Program-made: the position numbers and the translations under genes
Assembly (NCBI GenBank): GCA_028289815.1
Contig: JAPYNQ010000027.1
Location: forward strand, 1 to 56,235
DNA: 56,235 nucleotides
DNA from: Gammaproteobacteria bacterium
GTDB lineage: Bacteria; Pseudomonadota; Gammaproteobacteria; JAJDYQ01
Reading direction: 5' to 3'
Notes under the pieces: generated by a model
Told to the model about the DNA's origin: nothing
The model's input: the letters and a program-made list of their open reading frames with translations, nothing else
Databases searched by the model: none
Shown: positions 2,944-56,235 of the stretch, in pieces
How positions within the stretch are numbered: position 1 is the first letter of the stretch
How the letters are laid out: the number at the start of each line of letters is the position of its first letter

Positions 2944-5583
2944 CTATAATACCGGTTCGCCGATCAGGCGCCGCTCAACCCAGCCGGCTACCGACCGCAA
3001 GGCCTCCGGCAATGCATTGACATCGCTACCTCCCCCCTGCGCCATATCGGGACGACCACCACCACGGCCACCGACCTGTTCGGCCACCATGTTGACCAAC
3101 TCACCGGCAGGAATTCGCTTGCTGGCATCTTTGCTGACACCGGCAATCAAACGGACCTTACCTTTTTCGACACCAGCCAGGACAATAGCAGCAGTACCCA
3201 GCCGGTCCTTCAGCTGATCAACCGTCTCTCGCAACATTTTCATATCGGCATTGTCCAGAGTCTCAGCCAGTACCCTGATACCGGCAGTCTCGGTTGCCCT
3301 GTCAGCCATATCATTGCCCCGGGAACTTGCCAGAACCGACTTGATCTGTTCCAGCTCCTTGTCCACCACACGCAGGCGCTCCATCATGGAGCGCACACTG
3401 TTTGCGATATCATGACGCGGACCTTTGACAATGGATGAAACTCTATCCAACTCGGCTTCCGTGCGGTATATCACATCAAGCGCGGTATCTCCGGTGACGG
3501 CTTCAATACGGCGCACACCTGCTGCAATCCCTGATTCCTGAGTGAGTTTGAAGAAACCAATATCACCGGTTCGCGCTACATGAGTACCGCCGCACAGCTC
3601 CAAGGAGAAATCACCTAGGCTTAGTACGCGAACTTCATCATCATACTTCTCGCCGAATAGCGCCATCGCACCTTCGGCAATGGCATCATCAAGCATCATC
3701 AGTCTGGTCCGTGCCTCGTGATTGCATCGGATTTGCTGATTGACCATACGCTCAACGGTGCAGAGCTCATCCGGCCTGACTGGTTCCGGATGAGAGAAGT
3801 CGAAGCGCAAATGATCAGGCGCGACAAGAGAACCTCTCTGTGTCACATGGCCCCCCAATACCTGGCGCAACGCCGCATGCAGCAAGTGAGTTGCCGAATG
3901 ATTCAAGGTGATGGAGCGACGACGTTTGCGGTCAATGACCAGCTTTACCCGTTCACCGACATGCAACTCACCTTGCTGCAGCTTGCCAATGTGTACAATT
4001 GAATTCACCTGCTTGCGGGTATCCAATACCTCAAACAGGGCCGAGGCGGTCGCTATCGTACCCCGGTCACCAACTTGGCCACCGGACTCAGCGTAAAAAG
4101 GCGTTTCGTTCAGTACCACCGAGCCTTCCTGTCCACATTTCAGTTGGCTTGTGGCCTGCCCCTCGTATATCAGTACGGTAATCTCTGATGCACCGTCAAA
4201 GTGATCGTAACCGGTGAAGTCGGTCTTCATATCTGCACTGACTGCCTTATTATAGTCTGCTTTGAAGCTGCCCGCGGCACGGGCACGCTGACGCTGCTCG
4301 TCCATACAGGCCTCAAAACCTTCCATATCCATACCCAAATTGCGTTCACGAGCAATATCGGCCATCAGATCAACGGGAAAACCATAGGTGTCATAAAGCC
4401 GAAAAATTGTTGCCCCCGGAATATCGCCGGAAGACATACCATGAATATCCTGCTCAAGGATTTTGATGCCCTGCTCCAGCGCTTCGGCAAAGCGTCTTTC
4501 CTCCTGTTGCAGTACCTGTTCAACCTGGATGCGTGCCGCATTCAGCTCCGGATAGGCATCTCCCATCTCATGGCAGAGCGGACCAACCAGCTTGTAGAAA
4601 AACGGGCCTTTTGCGCCGAGCTGCTTGCCGTGGCGGATTGCACGGCGAATAATCCTGCGCAACACATAACCCCGGCCATCGTTGGACGGCAGCACACCAT
4701 CAACTATCAGATAGGAACAGCTGCGAATATGGTCGGCAATAACCCGCAACGATTTTTGCTGACGATTTTTAACGCCAATAACTCCAGCCGCCGCCTGTAT
4801 CAAGTTAATAAAGAGATCCGTTTCATAATTTTCATGAACACCTTGCAACACGGCAGCCAGTCGCTCCAACCCCATGCCGGTATCAACTGAAGGTTTAGGT
4901 AAAGGGTACATTTGGCCGGTTTCATCGCGATTAAACTGTATGAAAACAAGATTCCAGATCTCAATATAGCGGTCACCATCACCTTCTTCGGTACCGGGAG
5001 GACCTCCCTGACATTGCGGGCCGTGATCGTAGAAAATCTCCGTACAAGGGCCGCAGGGGCCAGTATCTCCCATAGACCAGAAATTATCGCTTTCATAACG
5101 CCTACCGCCGGGTTTATCGCCAATCCGAGAAAAACGCTCAGGGTCAACACCAATTTGCCGCAACCAGATATCGGCTGATTCATCGTCTTCTTCATAAACT
5201 GTTACCCACAGACGCTGCTCAGGCAAGCCGGCCTCCTCGATCAGAAAATCCCAAGCCAATCTGATCGCATCTTTCTTGAAATAGTCACCAAAACTGAAAT
5301 TCCCCAACATTTCAAAAAAGGTATGGTGACGGGCAGTATAACCAACATTCTCCAGATCATTGTGCTTGCCACCGGCACGCACACAGCGCTGGGAACTTGC
5401 TGCACGGAGATAGCCACGTTGCTCGTGCCCTAAAAAGACATCCTTGAAGGGCACCATTCCGGCATTGGTAAACAACAATGTCGAATCATTCGACGGCACC
5501 AGCGTAGCACTCGGAACGACTTCGTGGCCTCTGTCCCGGAAATAATTAAGAAACATCTGACGAATTTCTGCGCTGCTTTTCAT
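2944..5583 (-). CDS. alaS: Alanine--tRNA ligase
   Basis: 879 residues from the ATG at 5583. A longer frame reaches 5661, but the family starts at [12 protein letters not shown], equivalent to the Escherichia start. The class II catalytic core is N-terminal ([34 protein letters not shown]). The tRNA-recognition region comes next, then the editing domain with [12 protein letters not shown] and CGGTHV (zinc-binding His and Cys), and the C-Ala oligomerisation domain with the glycine-rich [15 protein letters not shown]. It charges tRNA-Ala and clears mischarged Ser/Gly. It lies between recX and lysC, as part of a recX-alaS-csrA neighbourhood. Confidence 0.98.
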
Positions 5584-47826: not shown

Positions 47827-47929
47827 TCTAAAAAAGCATCGCTGACACCATCTCTCAATACACAGCAGGCCGATCCTGAAATACAAGACCGACCAAGGCT
47901 TAACGACACCCCTCAGCCGGTGCGCAACA

Positions 47930-48206
47930 TTATAACAGCTTGATCAGCGCAACCACCAAACCACCTTGAGGAAAGCAAGGTCCGCTTGGTTTCCTAGCGC
48001 AGGGCTTCTGTCTCGCGAACTTTGTCTCCTGTCACAGAACCTCTGCGTCCGTTCGGAGACGTTCAATATCAACCCTGGTTGCAAGATTGGTGTTGAGCAT
48101 CACAATCTGCCCATTGACCAATACCTCAACCTGTTTGCTCGATAAAATCGCCCTTTATCAGGCGCTTGACAAAACGATGGGTGTCAAATGCAATCAATTC
48201 TTTCAT
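47930..48206 (-). pseudogene. Decayed DUF1640-type coiled-coil gene, copy A
   Basis: The ATG at 48206 opens MKELIAFDTHRFVKRLIK, the usual start of DUF1640 coiled-coil proteins. It ends at TGA after about 26 codons. The neighbouring frame then gives VEVLVNGQIVMLNTNLATR and DIERLRTDAEVL, followed by TGA, and the terminal LVVALIKLL before TAA at 47930-47932. So at least one frameshift, a stop and a shortened coil are present. It is similar in sequence to the copy at 55923-56235, including the downstream cctcagccgg flank. The gene family is usually membrane-anchored at the C-terminus. Confidence 0.7.
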
Positions 48207-51825: not shown

Positions 51826-51854
51826 TTGCGCTATTTGGTTGGCTTCGGTATAAT
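51826..51854 (+). promoter_or_regulatory. Promoter of the ribbon-helix-helix/methyltransferase genes
   Basis: TTGCGC (51826-51831) and a perfect TATAAT (51849-51854) are separated by 17 bp. Just downstream, between the -10 box and the first gene, tatgt...acata arms form a short dyad that could be bound by the ribbon-helix-helix protein for autorepression. Confidence 0.5.
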
Positions 51855-51911
51855 CGGTGTTATATCACATATGTTACATGACATAGGCAATAGTTATATT
51901 GTGGGCAGCTG

Positions 51912-52118
51912 ATGGCACGAGGAAAATCAGGCAGGATAGTACTGGAAATAGATCCGGAATTGAAGCGTCAGCTATATACCACGTTAGAAAACAGGCAGCA
52001 AACCATGAAAGAATGGTTTATTCGTGAAGCTGAAGGTCTTGTTTGCAGCGGGAAACAGCCCTCCCTTTTTGATGTGCCGGAAAAAATCCAAACCAACAAA
52101 ACCGGTGGTGAGAAATGA
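51912..52118 (+). CDS. Small ribbon-helix-helix-like DNA-binding protein
   Basis: 68 residues. A short strand region GRIVLEIDPELKRQL is followed by the helix TTLENRQQTMKEWFIREA, which is the ribbon-helix-helix pattern of Arc/ParD-type repressors. The tail is polar. The final codons overlap the methyltransferase start (ATGA, 52115-52118), which shows translational coupling. It may regulate the restriction-modification genes, as small controller proteins often do. A toxin-antitoxin role is the alternative, but no toxin gene is adjacent. Confidence 0.6.
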   Translation: MARGKSGRIVLEIDPELKRQLYTTLENRQQTMKEWFIREAEGLVCSGKQPSLFDVPEKIQTNKTGGEK

Positions 52119-53755
52119 ATTTCAAGGAAAACGAGTCTGCGCAAAAACTAAGAGGGGGCTACTACACCCCATATGATCTGGCTCACTACTTATCTAAATG
52201 GATTGCAGAAACAAACCCTGAAACCGTACTGGAACCTGCCTGCGGAGATGGGATATTCCTTGAATCTTTATCTGCTTCGCTTGCGGTGCGTACCTCAATT
52301 ACCGCAATAGAGCTTGACCGCGCAGAAGCCAAACTCGCAGCAGAAAGAGCAAGCGTGCTCAAAAATTCGAACATCAGTGTTATATGTGCCGATTTTTTAG
52401 AATGGCATTTAACTTCGGAACAGAAAAACTCCCAATATGATGCCATAGTAGGCAATCCTCCATTCATAAGATACCAGTACTTATTAGAGAAAGATCAAGA
52501 ATTTTCAGAGCAGATTTTTAAGCAGCACAATCTCCGCTTTACAAAGCATACTAACGCTTGGGTTCCTTTCGTTATTGCATCGCTGTCAATGCTTCGCCCT
52601 GGCGGAAGACTGGCAATGGTTCTGCCATCGGAAATATTGCACGTTCTTCATGCCCAATCCCTTCGATTTTATATCGGGCAACAATGCAAGAAACTAGTCA
52701 TTATTGATCCGGAGGAAATCTGGTTTGATGGAACGTTACAAGGTGCTGTCTTATTGCTTGCGGAAAAGAAGAAAAATATTAATGAACATACTACCGGATT
52801 AGGCATTATCCAGACTAAAGGGAAATCGTTTTTAGGTCAAAGCCCCAGTAATTATTTTAATAAAACCAACTTTATCAATGGCAAGGCCGTTGAAGGAAAA
52901 TGGACAAGGGCAATATTAACTAGGAAGGAACTGGACATATTCGATGGAGTAATTAACAGTGAAAATGTTCATCAATTCACAGACATTGCCGAAGTTGATG
53001 TTGGACTTGTAACCGGGGCGAACAACTTTTTCTTGGTGAATGATGAAACTGTCGATAACTACAATTTAGAAAAATGGTCATACCCGATGTTCGGCAGAAG
53101 TGAGCATTGCCCCGGTATTCTCTATGACGAGAAACAGCATCAGAATAATTCTGATGCCGGCCTTCCATCTAATTTTCTCTGGTTTGATGTAAACGATGTT
53201 TCTGAGCTTTCTAATAGTGCCCACGAATATATTCGCCTGGGAGAGAGTGAAAATTTACATACGCGCTACAAATGCAGAATACGTAAACCGTGGTTCAAAG
53301 TACCGTCTGTATATGCCACTCAGGTTGGCATGCTCAAACGTGCCCATGATATGCCTCGACTCATATTAAATGAAGTTGGCGCTTACACTACCGATACTGC
53401 ATACCGCATTACAACCAAAAATGTTGACGCAAAGAAATTTGTTTACTGCTTCATTAACTCTTTTACCGCGCTTGATTCGGAACTTGAAGGCAGGTACTAT
53501 GGCGGGGGAGTACTGGAGCTTGTGCCTTCAGAGATTGAAAAGCTATACGTACCTATTCCGGCACAGACTCGTACCGCAATGAAAACCCTTGACAAGATGA
53601 TAAGAAATTCTTCATCGAGTCAGGTATTAGCCTTCCAAGATAGCAGAGTATTAGGAGACCTGGGCTTAACCACGGATGAGATCGTATGCCTTCACGCAGC
53701 ATGGGATAAACTGCGTAACAGACGCCAACGGGCATCCGGTGCCATTAGTCAATAA
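52115..53755 (+). CDS. Adenine-specific DNA methyltransferase (Eco57I/TaqI type)
   Basis: 546 residues. GGYYTPYDLAHYLSKWI starts the domain, SAM-binding motif I is VLEPACGDGIFLESL (38-52), and the N6-adenine catalytic NPPF is at 114-117 (IVGNPPFIRY). MLRPGGRLAMVLPSEILH is a further family block. The C-terminal half (about 260-546) has GLVTGANNFFLV and GRYYGGGVLELVPSEIEKL, the target-recognition part of TaqI-like enzymes. It transfers a methyl group to adenine in a specific DNA site. It overlaps the upstream gene by 4 bp and the convergent nuclease gene by 11 bp. Confidence 0.93.
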   Translation: MNFKENESAQKLRGGYYTPYDLAHYLSKWIAETNPETVLEPACGDGIFLESLSASLAVRTSITAIELDRAEAKLAAERASVLKNSNISVICADFLEWHLTSEQKNSQYDAIVGNPPFIRYQYLLEKDQEFSEQIFKQHNLRFTKHTNAWVPFVIASLSMLRPGGRLAMVLPSEILHVLHAQSLRFYIGQQCKKLVIIDPEEIWFDGTLQGAVLLLAEKKKNINEHTTGLGIIQTKGKSFLGQSPSNYFNKTNFINGKAVEGKWTRAILTRKELDIFDGVINSENVHQFTDIAEVDVGLVTGANNFFLVNDETVDNYNLEKWSYPMFGRSEHCPGILYDEKQHQNNSDAGLPSNFLWFDVNDVSELSNSAHEYIRLGESENLHTRYKCRIRKPWFKVPSVYATQVGMLKRAHDMPRLILNEVGAYTTDTAYRITTKNVDAKKFVYCFINSFTALDSELEGRYYGGGVLELVPSEIEKLYVPIPAQTRTAMKTLDKMIRNSSSSQVLAFQDSRVLGDLGLTTDEIVCLHAAWDKLRNRRQRASGAISQ

Positions 53756-54881
53756 CAATCACAAAATCAGTTGAATTTTTCTTAAACAATCTCAGCGTGC
53801 TATCTAACAGTTCGCATTTTGCGATTAGATGCCTTACCTCACCCCACCTGATTTTAGTCATGGTGTTTCCCTGCCTATAACTTTTCGTATTAGTTTTTGG
53901 ATTATGAGTAACCTCCAGTGTATAAACTCCATGTGATATATTTTTTATCACTATCTCGGCATTAATTGTTGCACGTTCAAGATGTGGGCTCCTTGCTCTA
54001 GGGTCCGTACTCCAGTTCAAATCAGAGAATACCTTTTCCCGAAAATAATGCTGAAAGTCTATACCCTCCATTAAACCCTGCCCCAGATTTATATCACCTG
54101 TTATGTTGGTGCTCGCTCTGTGGGGGATATTCAGACTTCGTTTTGTAAGCGGCTTGCTTTCCCATACGAGAATACCCGTGTTAGCAACTATTTCGGCTTT
54201 GCGGATCCTTGCGACTTTATTTCGGCCCGGCTTTCTTTTCTCAAATGTCGGTATTGGCTTTAGCCTGTCTCCAGCCTTGTTACCATGCGCTTTACCGGTT
54301 ACAGGTGGTAATTTTACTAAACGCTCATCTTCCAACCGCCCCTCATGTAGCAGTTTAACAGTTTGCCTAGGGTTGGTAATTTGAAATACATGATCGGGGT
54401 ATGTCTCTGGAAGCCGGGTAATCGTCGTAACAAGCTCTTGAAGATAAGCATCATCTGACTGTCGGCTTCTATCCAGCTTGAGAGATGAACTCGCTTCTAT
54501 ATTCTGATTCAGGCCACCAAATGTTAAATTGGCACTGCCCAGTACCACAAATGCTTTAGTTTCACTATACACCGCATATATTTTCGGATGAAGTATCTTT
54601 TTACTTGAAGCTGTATCTACAACATATGGGTTAATCCCGATTTTTAATAAAGCAAAAATACTCTGTGCAGAAGTAATCCCGTTTCTGATACCAATAAATA
54701 CCTTCGATTTGTCTGCTACATTCCTTAAATTGTTTTTGATTCTATTGACCCCGCCTTTTCGTGTAAAGGCAAGGCCAAATAAAAAGTTATCTGTAGCAGG
54801 GGTTGTTAACAGCTCATTGACTACCGTTTCATGATCATAATCCTGCCTTAATCCCTGCAGGATCATTTTAAGCTCAGCCAT
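53745..54881 (-). CDS. PLD-family nuclease, probable restriction endonuclease
   Basis: 378 residues. The N-terminal half (about 20-135) is a phospholipase-D fold: HPKIYAVY (His98, Lys100 of the HxK motif), FVVLGSANLTFGG (Asn117) and NIEASS (Glu129). One such motif per chain suggests a dimer, as in the BfiI nuclease. The C-terminal part is basic and beta-rich and may hold DNA specificity. It is convergent with the methyltransferase, and the 3' ends overlap by 11 bp. The pair fits a type II restriction-modification system in which methyltransferase and nuclease are transcribed toward one another. Family assignment to BfiI/NgoFVII-like is inference. Confidence 0.8.
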   Translation of the reverse strand: MAELKMILQGLRQDYDHETVVNELLTTPATDNFLFGLAFTRKGGVNRIKNNLRNVADKSKVFIGIRNGITSAQSIFALLKIGINPYVVDTASSKKILHPKIYAVYSETKAFVVLGSANLTFGGLNQNIEASSSLKLDRSRQSDDAYLQELVTTITRLPETYPDHVFQITNPRQTVKLLHEGRLEDERLVKLPPVTGKAHGNKAGDRLKPIPTFEKRKPGRNKVARIRKAEIVANTGILVWESKPLTKRSLNIPHRASTNITGDINLGQGLMEGIDFQHYFREKVFSDLNWSTDPRARSPHLERATINAEIVIKNISHGVYTLEVTHNPKTNTKSYRQGNTMTKIRWGEVRHLIAKCELLDSTLRLFKKNSTDFVIVID

Positions 54882-55582
54882 CTTCCTACTACCAGTTCCT
54901 GTATTCTGCCGTATAAGTCCCTTATTGAAATAGCCTCCGAAAGGAGGGGCGGCATACTACAACGAAACTCTGCTTGACCCTCATCATTGATAAAAGCAAC
55001 ACTAGTGATTGTTCCATTCAGGGCCAGTGATGCCGCAGGAACAGCGAGAGATGAATCGTCGCCCAAAAGCTCACGAGCTGCTAATACTCCGGGAGTACCG
55101 TCCGGGTTTGTGCCGGTCCAGATGACCCGGCCCTCGGGTACGGTAAAGGCCGTGCCCGATTCACTCCGGCGCGCATTGCTGTCCCAGCTGCCGTCATACA
55201 AATCGGCATAGTTATCGGCGGCTTTGTCGCCGCCCAGCCAGTAGATGGCGGCATCGGTATCCGAGGCGCCGGTCTGTGTGTTGGTGCGTGCATTGACCGT
55301 TGTGGTGGAGCCGATGACCCGGAACGCATCGCCGCAGCTATCGCTGATCGACATATGGCCCGCCTTGGCACGGGTCTGCACAAAGCTGTTGTAGTGACTG
55401 ATGCCAGCTTGACCTGCATCGGTTCTAGCTGAGGTCACAAACAGCAATCGGAACTTGGCGCCGACAGCCAGGCCGGAAGGTATCAATGGCCAGTCAGACC
55501 GCGCATTATAGGAGCCGTCAGCATTGGCGGTATTGCATTCAACTGTCTGCGCCTGCGCCTCGCCGGCAGTCAAGGCCAGCAT
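54863..55582 (-). CDS. Secreted repeat-domain protein, probably truncated
   Basis: About 239 residues from the ATG at 55582; the frame extends to 55747 without a clear start. After LTAGEAQAQTVECNTANADGS the domain has SDWPLIPSGLAVGAKFRLLFVTS, YNSFVQTRAKAGH, IYWLGGDKAADNYADLYDG and VIWTGTNPDGT. This domain occurs in large secreted or surface proteins of marine and host-associated bacteria, where several repeats and Ig-like domains follow. Here there is one domain and a short tail. The signal peptide is degenerate. Its 3' end overlaps the nuclease start by 19 bp, so the cassette border probably cut the gene. Confidence 0.55.
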   Translation of the reverse strand: MLALTAGEAQAQTVECNTANADGSYNARSDWPLIPSGLAVGAKFRLLFVTSARTDAGQAGISHYNSFVQTRAKAGHMSISDSCGDAFRVIGSTTTVNARTNTQTGASDTDAAIYWLGGDKAADNYADLYDGSWDSNARRSESGTAFTVPEGRVIWTGTNPDGTPGVLAARELLGDDSSLAVPAASLALNGTITSVAFINDEGQAEFRCSMPPLLSEAISIRDLYGRIQELVVGRWLSLK

Positions 55583-55922
55583 CGGGTTCCCGTGTAACGG
55601 GAAATACCGGCAGCCTGTGCATCGGCAATGTTGGTCGAGGCCCGTAATGGGCACTTTGAATATCGATACCGGATTGAGTCGGGGAAGACTCCCACAGCAA
55701 CGGCATTTTTGTTGATTCCATCGTTTCGTTATCCTCTCACGGTACACATTTCAGTTCTGTCTCTATCACGATAGTGCCAGCCCCGGCCATACTCTGCCTC
55801 CCTGTCCGACAGACACTCTCGCTCCACTATCTTAGAAACAACCCGCTGCCTTTGTCAATAAGCAGCGTAAAAAAAATTCAGGCAGCCCGACAGGGACACT
55901 CGCCTCAGCCGGTACACAGCAT

Positions 55923-56235
55923 TTACAACAGCTTGATCAGCGCAACCACCAGTCCCCCCTAGGCAATGAGTGCCCCAACCATCGCCTTGAGCAAATCGGC
56001 CTTGACCGAGGCAATCCCGGACCGGGTTTCTTGCCGCAGCAGCTCTATCTCAAACTTGATCTCCTGCCGCAGGGATTCTACACCGGCTTGAACTTTTTCT
56101 ATTTCAACCCGGGTTTCCTAGCGCAGGGATTCTACACTGGCCTGAACTTTTTCTATTCCAACCCGGGTTTCCTGGCGCAGGGATTCTATCTCAGACTTGG
56201 TTTCCTGCCGCAGAATCTCTGCATCTGTTCGGAGT
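55923..56235 (-). pseudogene. Decayed DUF1640-type coiled-coil gene, copy B (runs off the window)
   Basis: On the minus strand a long heptad-repeat frame runs from the window edge: repeats of the type SLRQETRVEIEKVQAGVE, then SVKADLLKAMVGALIA and GGLVVALIKLL before TAA at 55923-55925. Two TAG codons interrupt it in frame, at 56118-56120 (where the repeats read LRQE) and 55959-55961 (just before the terminal hydrophobic segment). No frameshift is needed. Copies A and B share the 3' end and flank. The missing 5' part lies outside the window. Confidence 0.7.

What the first reader, a model, noticed from the sequence alone, without database searches (positions are those of the whole stretch)
51912..54881. 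Compact restriction-modification cassette with a ribbon-helix-helix controller
A coupled ribbon-helix-helix protein and Eco57I/TaqI-like adenine methyltransferase face a PLD-fold nuclease whose gene overlaps the methyltransferase 3' end. It has its own promoter and dyad, and an island-like border at a truncated gene. A PLD nuclease with a gamma-type methyltransferase and a ribbon-helix-helix regulator is an uncommon set.
Basis: partly seen in the sequence, partly recalled or inferred. Interest (0 to 1): 0.6.

Follow-up and report, generated by a model that had tools for sequence, protein, structure and literature searches.

The report
RHH-controlled PLD-nuclease restriction-modification cassette
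This is a small horizontally acquired bacterial DNA-defence unit (a DNA-marking enzyme, a BfiI-like DNA-cutting enzyme and a tiny repressor), and its repressor belongs to an apparently undescribed family that sits, mostly with the same palindromic DNA switch, in front of many otherwise unrelated DNA-methylating defence systems.

Summary
RHH (51912-52118 +) is coupled by a 4-bp overlap to a gamma-class N6-adenine methyltransferase (52115-53755 +; Pfam M_Eco57I_C, E 6e-96), which faces a PLD nuclease (53745-54881 -) with an 11-bp 3' overlap. The nuclease has one HxK..N..E site, invariant in ten methyltransferase-nuclease cassettes, and matches BfiI best by sequence and fold. The pair co-evolves (Mantel r 0.59, p 0.007). 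The full three-gene cassette recurs in a planctomycete MAG and three viral contigs, so it is rare but not unique. GC (42% against 50%) supports acquisition; no clean empty site was found. The RHH protein is the new part. Its family has no Pfam model. It precedes a palindrome, TATGTNACATA (at most 1 mismatch in 7 of 8 upstream regions; shuffles mean 0.25, maximum 3; absent from 9 methyltransferase genes lacking it), often doubled at 9-bp spacing. Related RHH genes, mostly with the ATGTNACAT core, lead D12, m5C and N4/N6 methyltransferases; a distant one leads DUF499/DUF1156 operons. Best reading: a Type II (BfiI-like) R-M system with an autorepressing RHH controller of the methyltransferase operon. 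This is a new variant of a known kind. Nothing was tested at the bench.

The parts
51849..51854 (+). Perfect -10 hexamer TATAAT of the probable RHH-MTase promoter (weak -35 TTGCGC 17 bp upstream)
   Evidence: Read from sequence; not reported by the consensus scan because the -35 is poor.
51861..51880 (+). Operator: two overlapping palindromes, TATATCACATA (51861-51871) and TATGTTACATG (51870-51880), centres 9 bp apart, at the expected transcription start
   Evidence: TATGTNACATA with at most 1 mismatch in 7 of 8 RHH upstream regions (shuffle mean 0.25, max 3 of 8), best of all 1,024 such palindromes, absent from 9 MTase upstreams lacking the RHH gene; flanks not alignable.
51912..52118 (+). 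Small ribbon-helix-helix protein (68 aa), probable autorepressor/controller
   Evidence: 15 invariant residues across 11 homologues; two-helix model; all ten weak PDB matches are RHH proteins: AmrZ, CdbA, Arc, MatP, TacA, ParD.
52115..53755 (+). Gamma-class (M.Eco57I-family) N6-adenine DNA methyltransferase, 546 aa; motif I LEPACGDGIF, motif IV NPPF; starts inside the RHH stop (ATGA)
   Evidence: Pfam M_Eco57I_C 5.6e-96, N6_Mtase 2.3e-16; PADLOC MTase_II 1e-199; BseCI 7qw5 5.5e-12; alignment A2.
53745..54881 (-). PLD-superfamily restriction endonuclease, 378 aa, convergent with and overlapping the MTase 3' end by 11 bp
   Evidence: fold match to BfiI 2c1l E 2.6e-10 and NgoAVII 4rct 1.1e-7.
54495..54590 (-). 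PLD active-site motif H98-P-K100 ... S-A-N118 ... E129 (one per polypeptide)
   Evidence: All four residues invariant in ten cassettes; aligned with the BfiI motif.
53748..54167 (-). C-terminal domain (residues 239-378), inferred sequence-recognition domain; also occurs alone beside related MTases
   Evidence: no match in Pfam, PADLOC or PDB profiles.
54863..55747 (-). Truncated secreted/adhesin-like gene at the cassette's right border (overlaps the nuclease start by 19 bp)
   Evidence: 49% identity over residues 71-219 to a G001 gene with a 1,033-aa open frame.

Best explanation
A mobile Type II restriction-modification system. The MTase methylates an adenine target in the host's own DNA; the PLD nuclease, probably a homodimer with a single shared HxK/N/E active site and a separate C-terminal recognition domain, cuts unmethylated foreign DNA, probably without metal as BfiI does. 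The RHH protein is co-translated with the MTase and represses their common promoter by binding tandem TATGTNACATA palindromes at the transcription start. In a newly entered cell there is no RHH protein, so MTase is made in a burst; as RHH accumulates the operon is throttled to a maintenance level. The nuclease has its own promoter not controlled by RHH, and its mRNA is opposed by convergent MTase transcription across the overlapping 3' ends, which would delay cutting until the host is methylated. Shown by sequence: gene identities, catalytic residues, recurrence and co-evolution of the pair, conservation and placement of the operator. Inferred: activity, recognition site, repression, timing, antisense effect.
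For: M and R families by profile and structure; active site invariant in ten pairs; nine of ten pairs convergent, with 3' ends overlapping or within about 50 bp; M and R distances correlated, Mantel r 0.59, p 0.007; RHH gene overlaps or lies within 22 bp of the MTase gene in all eight RHH cassettes; operator statistics with non-alignable flanks; no operator upstream of ten nuclease genes; an Xre-type HTH occupies the same slot in G069, as expected if the slot is for a controller; low GC and plasmid/provirus relatives. Kpn2I is a studied precedent for a controller that inhibits the M promoter while R has a weak constitutive one (PMC6237814).
Against: No biochemical data. The RHH fold rests on a monomer model (pLDDT about 90 only in the helices) and weak fold scores. 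Five of the ten M+PLD pairs lack this RHH protein, so it is not essential. The window's operator copies each have one mismatch and the planctomycete copy has two. No nuclease promoter was identified. The C-terminal domain is not shown to be B3-like or to bind DNA.
Confidence: 0.8

Rival explanations
1. Orphan methylation module: the MTase is active for anti-restriction or epigenetic reasons and the nuclease is a decaying passenger.
For: Several phage contigs keep this MTase without the nuclease or with only its C-terminal domain (L032, L033, L037, L038); one plasmid copy is broken by IS1380 (L010).
Against: In the window the nuclease is full length with all catalytic residues, and M and R co-diverge.
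Confidence: 0.1
2. The small RHH protein is a plasmid-partition (ParG-like) or toxin-antitoxin relic that happens to precede the MTase and does not regulate it.
For: In Roseobacter, Yoonia and Psychrobacter plasmids the gene upstream of the MTase is a ParG-like partition protein behind parA; RHH proteins are common antitoxins.
Against: The RHH family here is distinct, has no parA neighbour in the window, overlaps the MTase gene in seven of eight cassettes, and travels with its operator in front of several unrelated MTases.
Confidence: 0.06
3. The nuclease is part of a multi-gene PLD system (DISARM DrmC-like, or NgoAVII/CglI with a helicase subunit) rather than a stand-alone restriction enzyme.
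For: Weak DrmC (best 6.1e-7) and ZacB (6.2e-8) PADLOC hits and an NgoFVII Pfam hit (0.0044).
Against: Pfam and NCBIfam scores are below curated cut-offs; no drmA/B or helicase gene is adjacent in the window or in the full cassettes.
Confidence: 0.04

Closest known systems
BfiI / BmrI (Type IIS PLD restriction enzymes, ACTGGG)
   Same: One PLD motif per chain with H, K, N and E; N-terminal nuclease plus C-terminal second domain; similar length (358 against 378 aa); best fold match and best single-sequence match.
   Different: C-terminal domain not detectably related by sequence profile; partner here is a single M.Eco57I-type MTase; specificity and metal independence unknown.
NgoFVII / NgoAVII / CglI (PLD nucleases; GCSGC- or GCCGC-type sites)
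   Same: PLD nuclease fold (4rct E 1.1e-7).
   Different: Pfam RE_NgoFVII below cut-off; no helicase subunit adjacent; the MTase here is an adenine enzyme (cytosine partner of NgoFVII recalled from general knowledge).
Eco57I / AcuI-type systems (M.Eco57I + Type IIG enzyme)
   Same: Same MTase family; relatives 52-53% identical on E. coli and Acinetobacter-type plasmids carry the same RHH leader and operator.
   Different: There the restriction partner is a roughly 1,000-aa Type IIG protein; here it is a 378-aa PLD nuclease.
C proteins of Type II R-M systems (HTH controllers, e.g. C.Kpn2I, C.PvuII)
   Same: Small protein gene next to R-M genes with palindromic boxes; Kpn2I is a precedent for repression of the M promoter.
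   Different: RHH instead of HTH fold; no operator at the nuclease gene, so no direct activation of R is indicated.
Omega / PaaR RHH repressors of three-gene toxin-antitoxin operons
   Same: RHH repressor gene preceding the antitoxin gene with repeated operator units at its own promoter (review PMC3874152).
   Different: Controls a methyltransferase, with the 'toxin' (nuclease) gene convergent and outside the operon.

Membership tests
Type II restriction-modification system | Adjacent DNA MTase and restriction nuclease genes conserved as a pair | tested here: met
   Ten M + PLD-R pairs, correlated divergence p 0.007.
Type II restriction-modification system | Nuclease and MTase share a recognition sequence | not testable with these tools
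   Needs methylome and cleavage data.
BfiI-like PLD restriction enzymes | Single HxK...N...E PLD motif in an N-terminal domain | tested here: met
   H98, K100, N118, E129 invariant in ten sequences; aligned to BfiI.
BfiI-like PLD restriction enzymes | C-terminal B3-like DNA-binding domain | tested here: inconclusive
   Fold search aligns over 377 columns to BfiI but with 17.7 A rmsd and low C-terminal confidence; no profile match.
BfiI-like PLD restriction enzymes | Metal-independent cleavage | not testable with these tools
   Biochemical property.
NgoFVII family (Pfam RE_NgoFVII) | Score above the Pfam gathering cut-off | tested here: not met
   16.8 bits against 23.8.
DISARM DrmC | NCBIfam DrmC cut-off and drmA/drmB neighbours | tested here: not met
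   16.2 bits against 133; no such neighbours.
M.Eco57I-family N6-adenine methyltransferase | M_Eco57I_C domain plus NPPF/Y and SAM motif | tested here: met
   5.6e-96 against M_Eco57I_C; NPPF and LEPACGDG present and conserved.
HTH C-protein (R-M controller) | Helix-turn-helix (Xre-type) fold | tested here: not met
   No HTH family match; model's fold matches are RHH. G069 has an Xre-like protein in the slot instead.
RHH (MetJ/Arc) transcription factors | Beta strand followed by two helices, dimer binding a palindromic operator | tested here: inconclusive
   Two helices 15-27 and 32-45 after a strand-like GRIVLEID segment; all ten fold matches are RHH but each weak; palindromic sequence conserved upstream.
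ParG partition proteins | Adjacent parA | tested here: not met
   No parA beside the window or L004 copies.

The most novel reading that the evidence does not exclude
The 60-70-aa RHH proteins with the signature SGRIVxExxPxxKxxLYxxLxxxxxTxKxWF are an undescribed, exchangeable class of controller for methyltransferase-based defence. They bring their own palindromic operator (core ATGTNACAT in most groups) and are found in front of Eco57I-type, D12, m5C and N4/N6 MTases, with a distant variant before DUF499/DUF3780/DUF1156 (BREX-related) operons, so that independently mobile defence systems in one cell could cross-repress or cross-time each other, as C-protein incompatibility groups do.
Probability: 0.55. 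Interest if true: 0.66.

Novelty: new variant of a known kind. Interest (0 to 1): 0.5.

Why it matters
Timing of methylation before cutting is the central regulatory problem of mobile R-M systems. The textbook solution is the HTH C protein. A conserved RHH family with a recognisable operator gives a second, testable solution. It predicts operators directly from sequence, it marks methyltransferase-based defence operons now annotated behind 'hypothetical proteins', and it raises the possibility of cross-regulation between different defence systems carried on plasmids and prophages. The PLD nuclease with its unclassified recognition domain is also a plausible source of new restriction specificities.

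Tried and rejected
Rejected: NgoFVII family and DISARM DrmC membership (below cut-offs); plasmid ParG identity of the RHH gene; use of TAG as a sense codon in this genome (TAG ends 11 of 29 long ORFs). Literature: the searches of the held library aimed at this point found no RHH controller of an R-M system; a 2013 review names HTH C proteins for R-M systems and RHH repressors only for toxin-antitoxin operons (PMC3874152), a 2025 review has no mention of RHH, and a 2026 survey of DUF499 systems does not mention an RHH leader. Subscription papers and REBASE were not searchable, so novelty is provisional.

Full report
WHAT IS THERE. Three open reading frames occupy 51912-54881: a 68-aa protein (51912-52118 +), a 546-aa protein whose ATG overlaps its stop (52115-53755 +), and a 378-aa protein on the other strand whose last codons overlap the second gene's 3' end by 11 bp (53745-54881 -). 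GC of the cassette is 0.422; no other 2,970-nt stretch of the first 51 kb is below 0.430 (mean 0.499, z -3.65). The left neighbour is leuA. The right neighbour is a truncated secreted-protein gene: residues 71-219 match (49%) a sister-genome gene with a 1,033-aa open frame, whereas the window ORF ends at the nuclease start. In the two sister genomes the sequence 5' of leuA is unrelated, so the region is variable, but no clean empty site exists. The window is the whole contig C20.

THE METHYLTRANSFERASE. Pfam M_Eco57I_C 5.6e-96, N6_Mtase 2.3e-16; PADLOC MTase_II 1e-199; closest solved relative M.BseCI. SAM motif LEPACGDG and catalytic NPPF are conserved in nine aligned relatives. It is the only close family member in its genome, and such members occur in 2 of 369 sampled genomes of its class at E <= 1e-60.

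THE NUCLEASE. Sequence hits are PLDc_2 (1.7e-4), RE_NgoFVII (0.0044, below cut-off), BfiI 2c1l (1.3e-4 single sequence; 8.5e-8 by profile) and SauUSI 7clg (1.5e-8 by profile). A model (mean pLDDT 65) finds BfiI first (E 2.6e-10), then SauUSI and NgoAVII. H98, K100, N118 and E129 are invariant in ten nucleases. The C-terminal 140 residues form a conserved domain with no match in Pfam, PADLOC or PDB profiles. It also exists alone next to related MTases (Lysinibacillus plasmid L011, provirus L025, phage contig L032). Its role as the recognition domain is inferred by analogy with BfiI.

RECURRENCE. MTase plus PLD nuclease pairs: the window, a Planctomycetota MAG (L004; 65% and 57% identity), two Rhodobacterales plasmids (L005, L006), G069 (L017), and viral contigs L025, L026, L031, L034 and L035. 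Nine of ten are tail to tail; L026 is in tandem. M and R distances correlate (Mantel r 0.59, p 0.007). The full RHH+M+R cassette is present in the window, L004, L025, L031 and L035. On E. coli, Klebsiella and Acinetobacter plasmids the same kind of RHH+MTase pair is found, with a Type IIG enzyme facing it in the two examples read; the E. coli RHH+MTase segment is near-identical in 28 of 5,426 E. coli genomes. The RHH gene therefore goes with the MTase. In G069 the slot holds an Xre-type protein; in some plasmids it is simply the plasmid's ParG.

THE CONTROLLER AND ITS OPERATOR. The RHH proteins share the pattern SGRIVxExxPxxKxxLYxxLxxxxxTxKxWF and have no significant Pfam, NCBIfam or PHROG match. 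The AlphaFold model has two helices after an extended N-terminal segment; all ten PDB fold matches are RHH proteins, though each is individually weak. In the 60 nt upstream of eight RHH genes, TATGTNACATA with at most one mismatch occurs in seven (1,000 dinucleotide shuffles: mean 0.25, maximum 3). It is the best of all 1,024 palindromes of that shape, and in 300 shuffles no palindrome exceeded four. In five of the eight (window, L008, L010, L025, L031) a second, sometimes weaker copy lies 9 bp from the first. The motif is absent within 300 nt of nine MTase genes lacking the RHH gene and within 250 nt of ten nuclease genes. Sequence from -160 to -60 is not alignable between any two cassettes (all |z| < 2), so shared ancestry of the upstream DNA does not explain the motif. 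In the window the two copies (51861-51880) lie 6 bp past a perfect TATAAT (51849-51854), where a repressor would block initiation.

THE FAMILY IS WIDER. A viral-contig search with the RHH alignment found the same leader before two D12 adenine MTases (L112), a large N6/m5C protein (L113, L114), two m5C MTases (L115), an N4/N6 MTase (L119) and an unclassified 867-aa protein (L116). Most of these carry the core AATGTNACATT; several look like related proviruses, so they are not all independent. Two class genomes carry it, with perfect or one-mismatch TATGTNACATA, ahead of a small SAM methyltransferase (L123, L124). Pseudomonas plasmids carry a more distant version directly before DUF499-DUF3780-DUF1156 operons, with a different upstream repeat; those operons were described as BREX-related without mention of an RHH gene (PMC12839542).

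MECHANISM. Most likely RHH dimers bind the tandem palindromes and autorepress the RHH-MTase operon: unrestrained MTase synthesis on entry, then a capped steady state. The nuclease appears unregulated by RHH, and convergent overlapping transcription may oppose it early. A controller that inhibits the MTase promoter while R is constitutive is known in Kpn2I (PMC6237814), and tail-to-tail overlapping R-M genes are described as uncommon (PMC3346939). Repression, timing and antisense effects are inference.

NOVELTY. PLD restriction enzymes are known and 'far from rare' (PMC4081073), as are Eco57I-type MTases. New, as far as the held library shows, are this particular partnership and above all an RHH class of R-M controller with its operator. 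Absence from the library is not proof; REBASE and subscription journals could not be searched.

Noticed in passing
L112, L113, L114, L115, L116, L119 (viral contigs), RHH starts near 5001 (4851 in L115): The same RHH leader with an ATGTAATGTAACATNNATNACATTACATTGTCAC-like dyad precedes unrelated DNA methyltransferases (D12 pair, m5C pair, N6/m5C, N4/N6) and usually diverges from other genes, often an uncharacterised one starting MARYSEHDTxKIYQAADxFR.
   Followed up: partly
L127:3992-4165, L128:3986-4165 (Pseudomonas/Stutzerimonas plasmids): A distant RHH relative lies about 20 bp before DUF499-DUF3780-DUF1156 anti-phage operons, annotated only as hypothetical protein.
   Followed up: partly
L123, L124 (genomes G196, G306): RHH gene with TATGTAACATA operators ahead of a small TehB-like SAM methyltransferase; in L123 a PLD-like protein follows.
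   Followed up: partly
L025:5860-6300; L032:7587-8033; L011:2441-2875: The nuclease's C-terminal domain encoded alone beside the same MTase family; in L025 in addition to a full-length nuclease. Function unknown (spare specificity, inhibitor or remnant).
   Followed up: partly
window 55930-56235 (- strand): Coiled-coil frame with two in-frame TAG codons where the repeats have CAG; looks like a pseudogene. TAG is a normal stop in this genome, and a 49-bp stretch at 47911-47958 is 90% identical to 55903-55951.
   Followed up: partly
L032, L033, L037, L038 (viral contigs): M.Eco57I-family MTases without an intact nuclease in phage contigs, possibly self-protection against this kind of R-M system.
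   Followed up: no
L010:3501-6792 (Sphingobium plasmid pl6): A relative of the RHH-MTase-nuclease cassette broken by an IS1380-family transposase inside the MTase gene.
   Followed up: no
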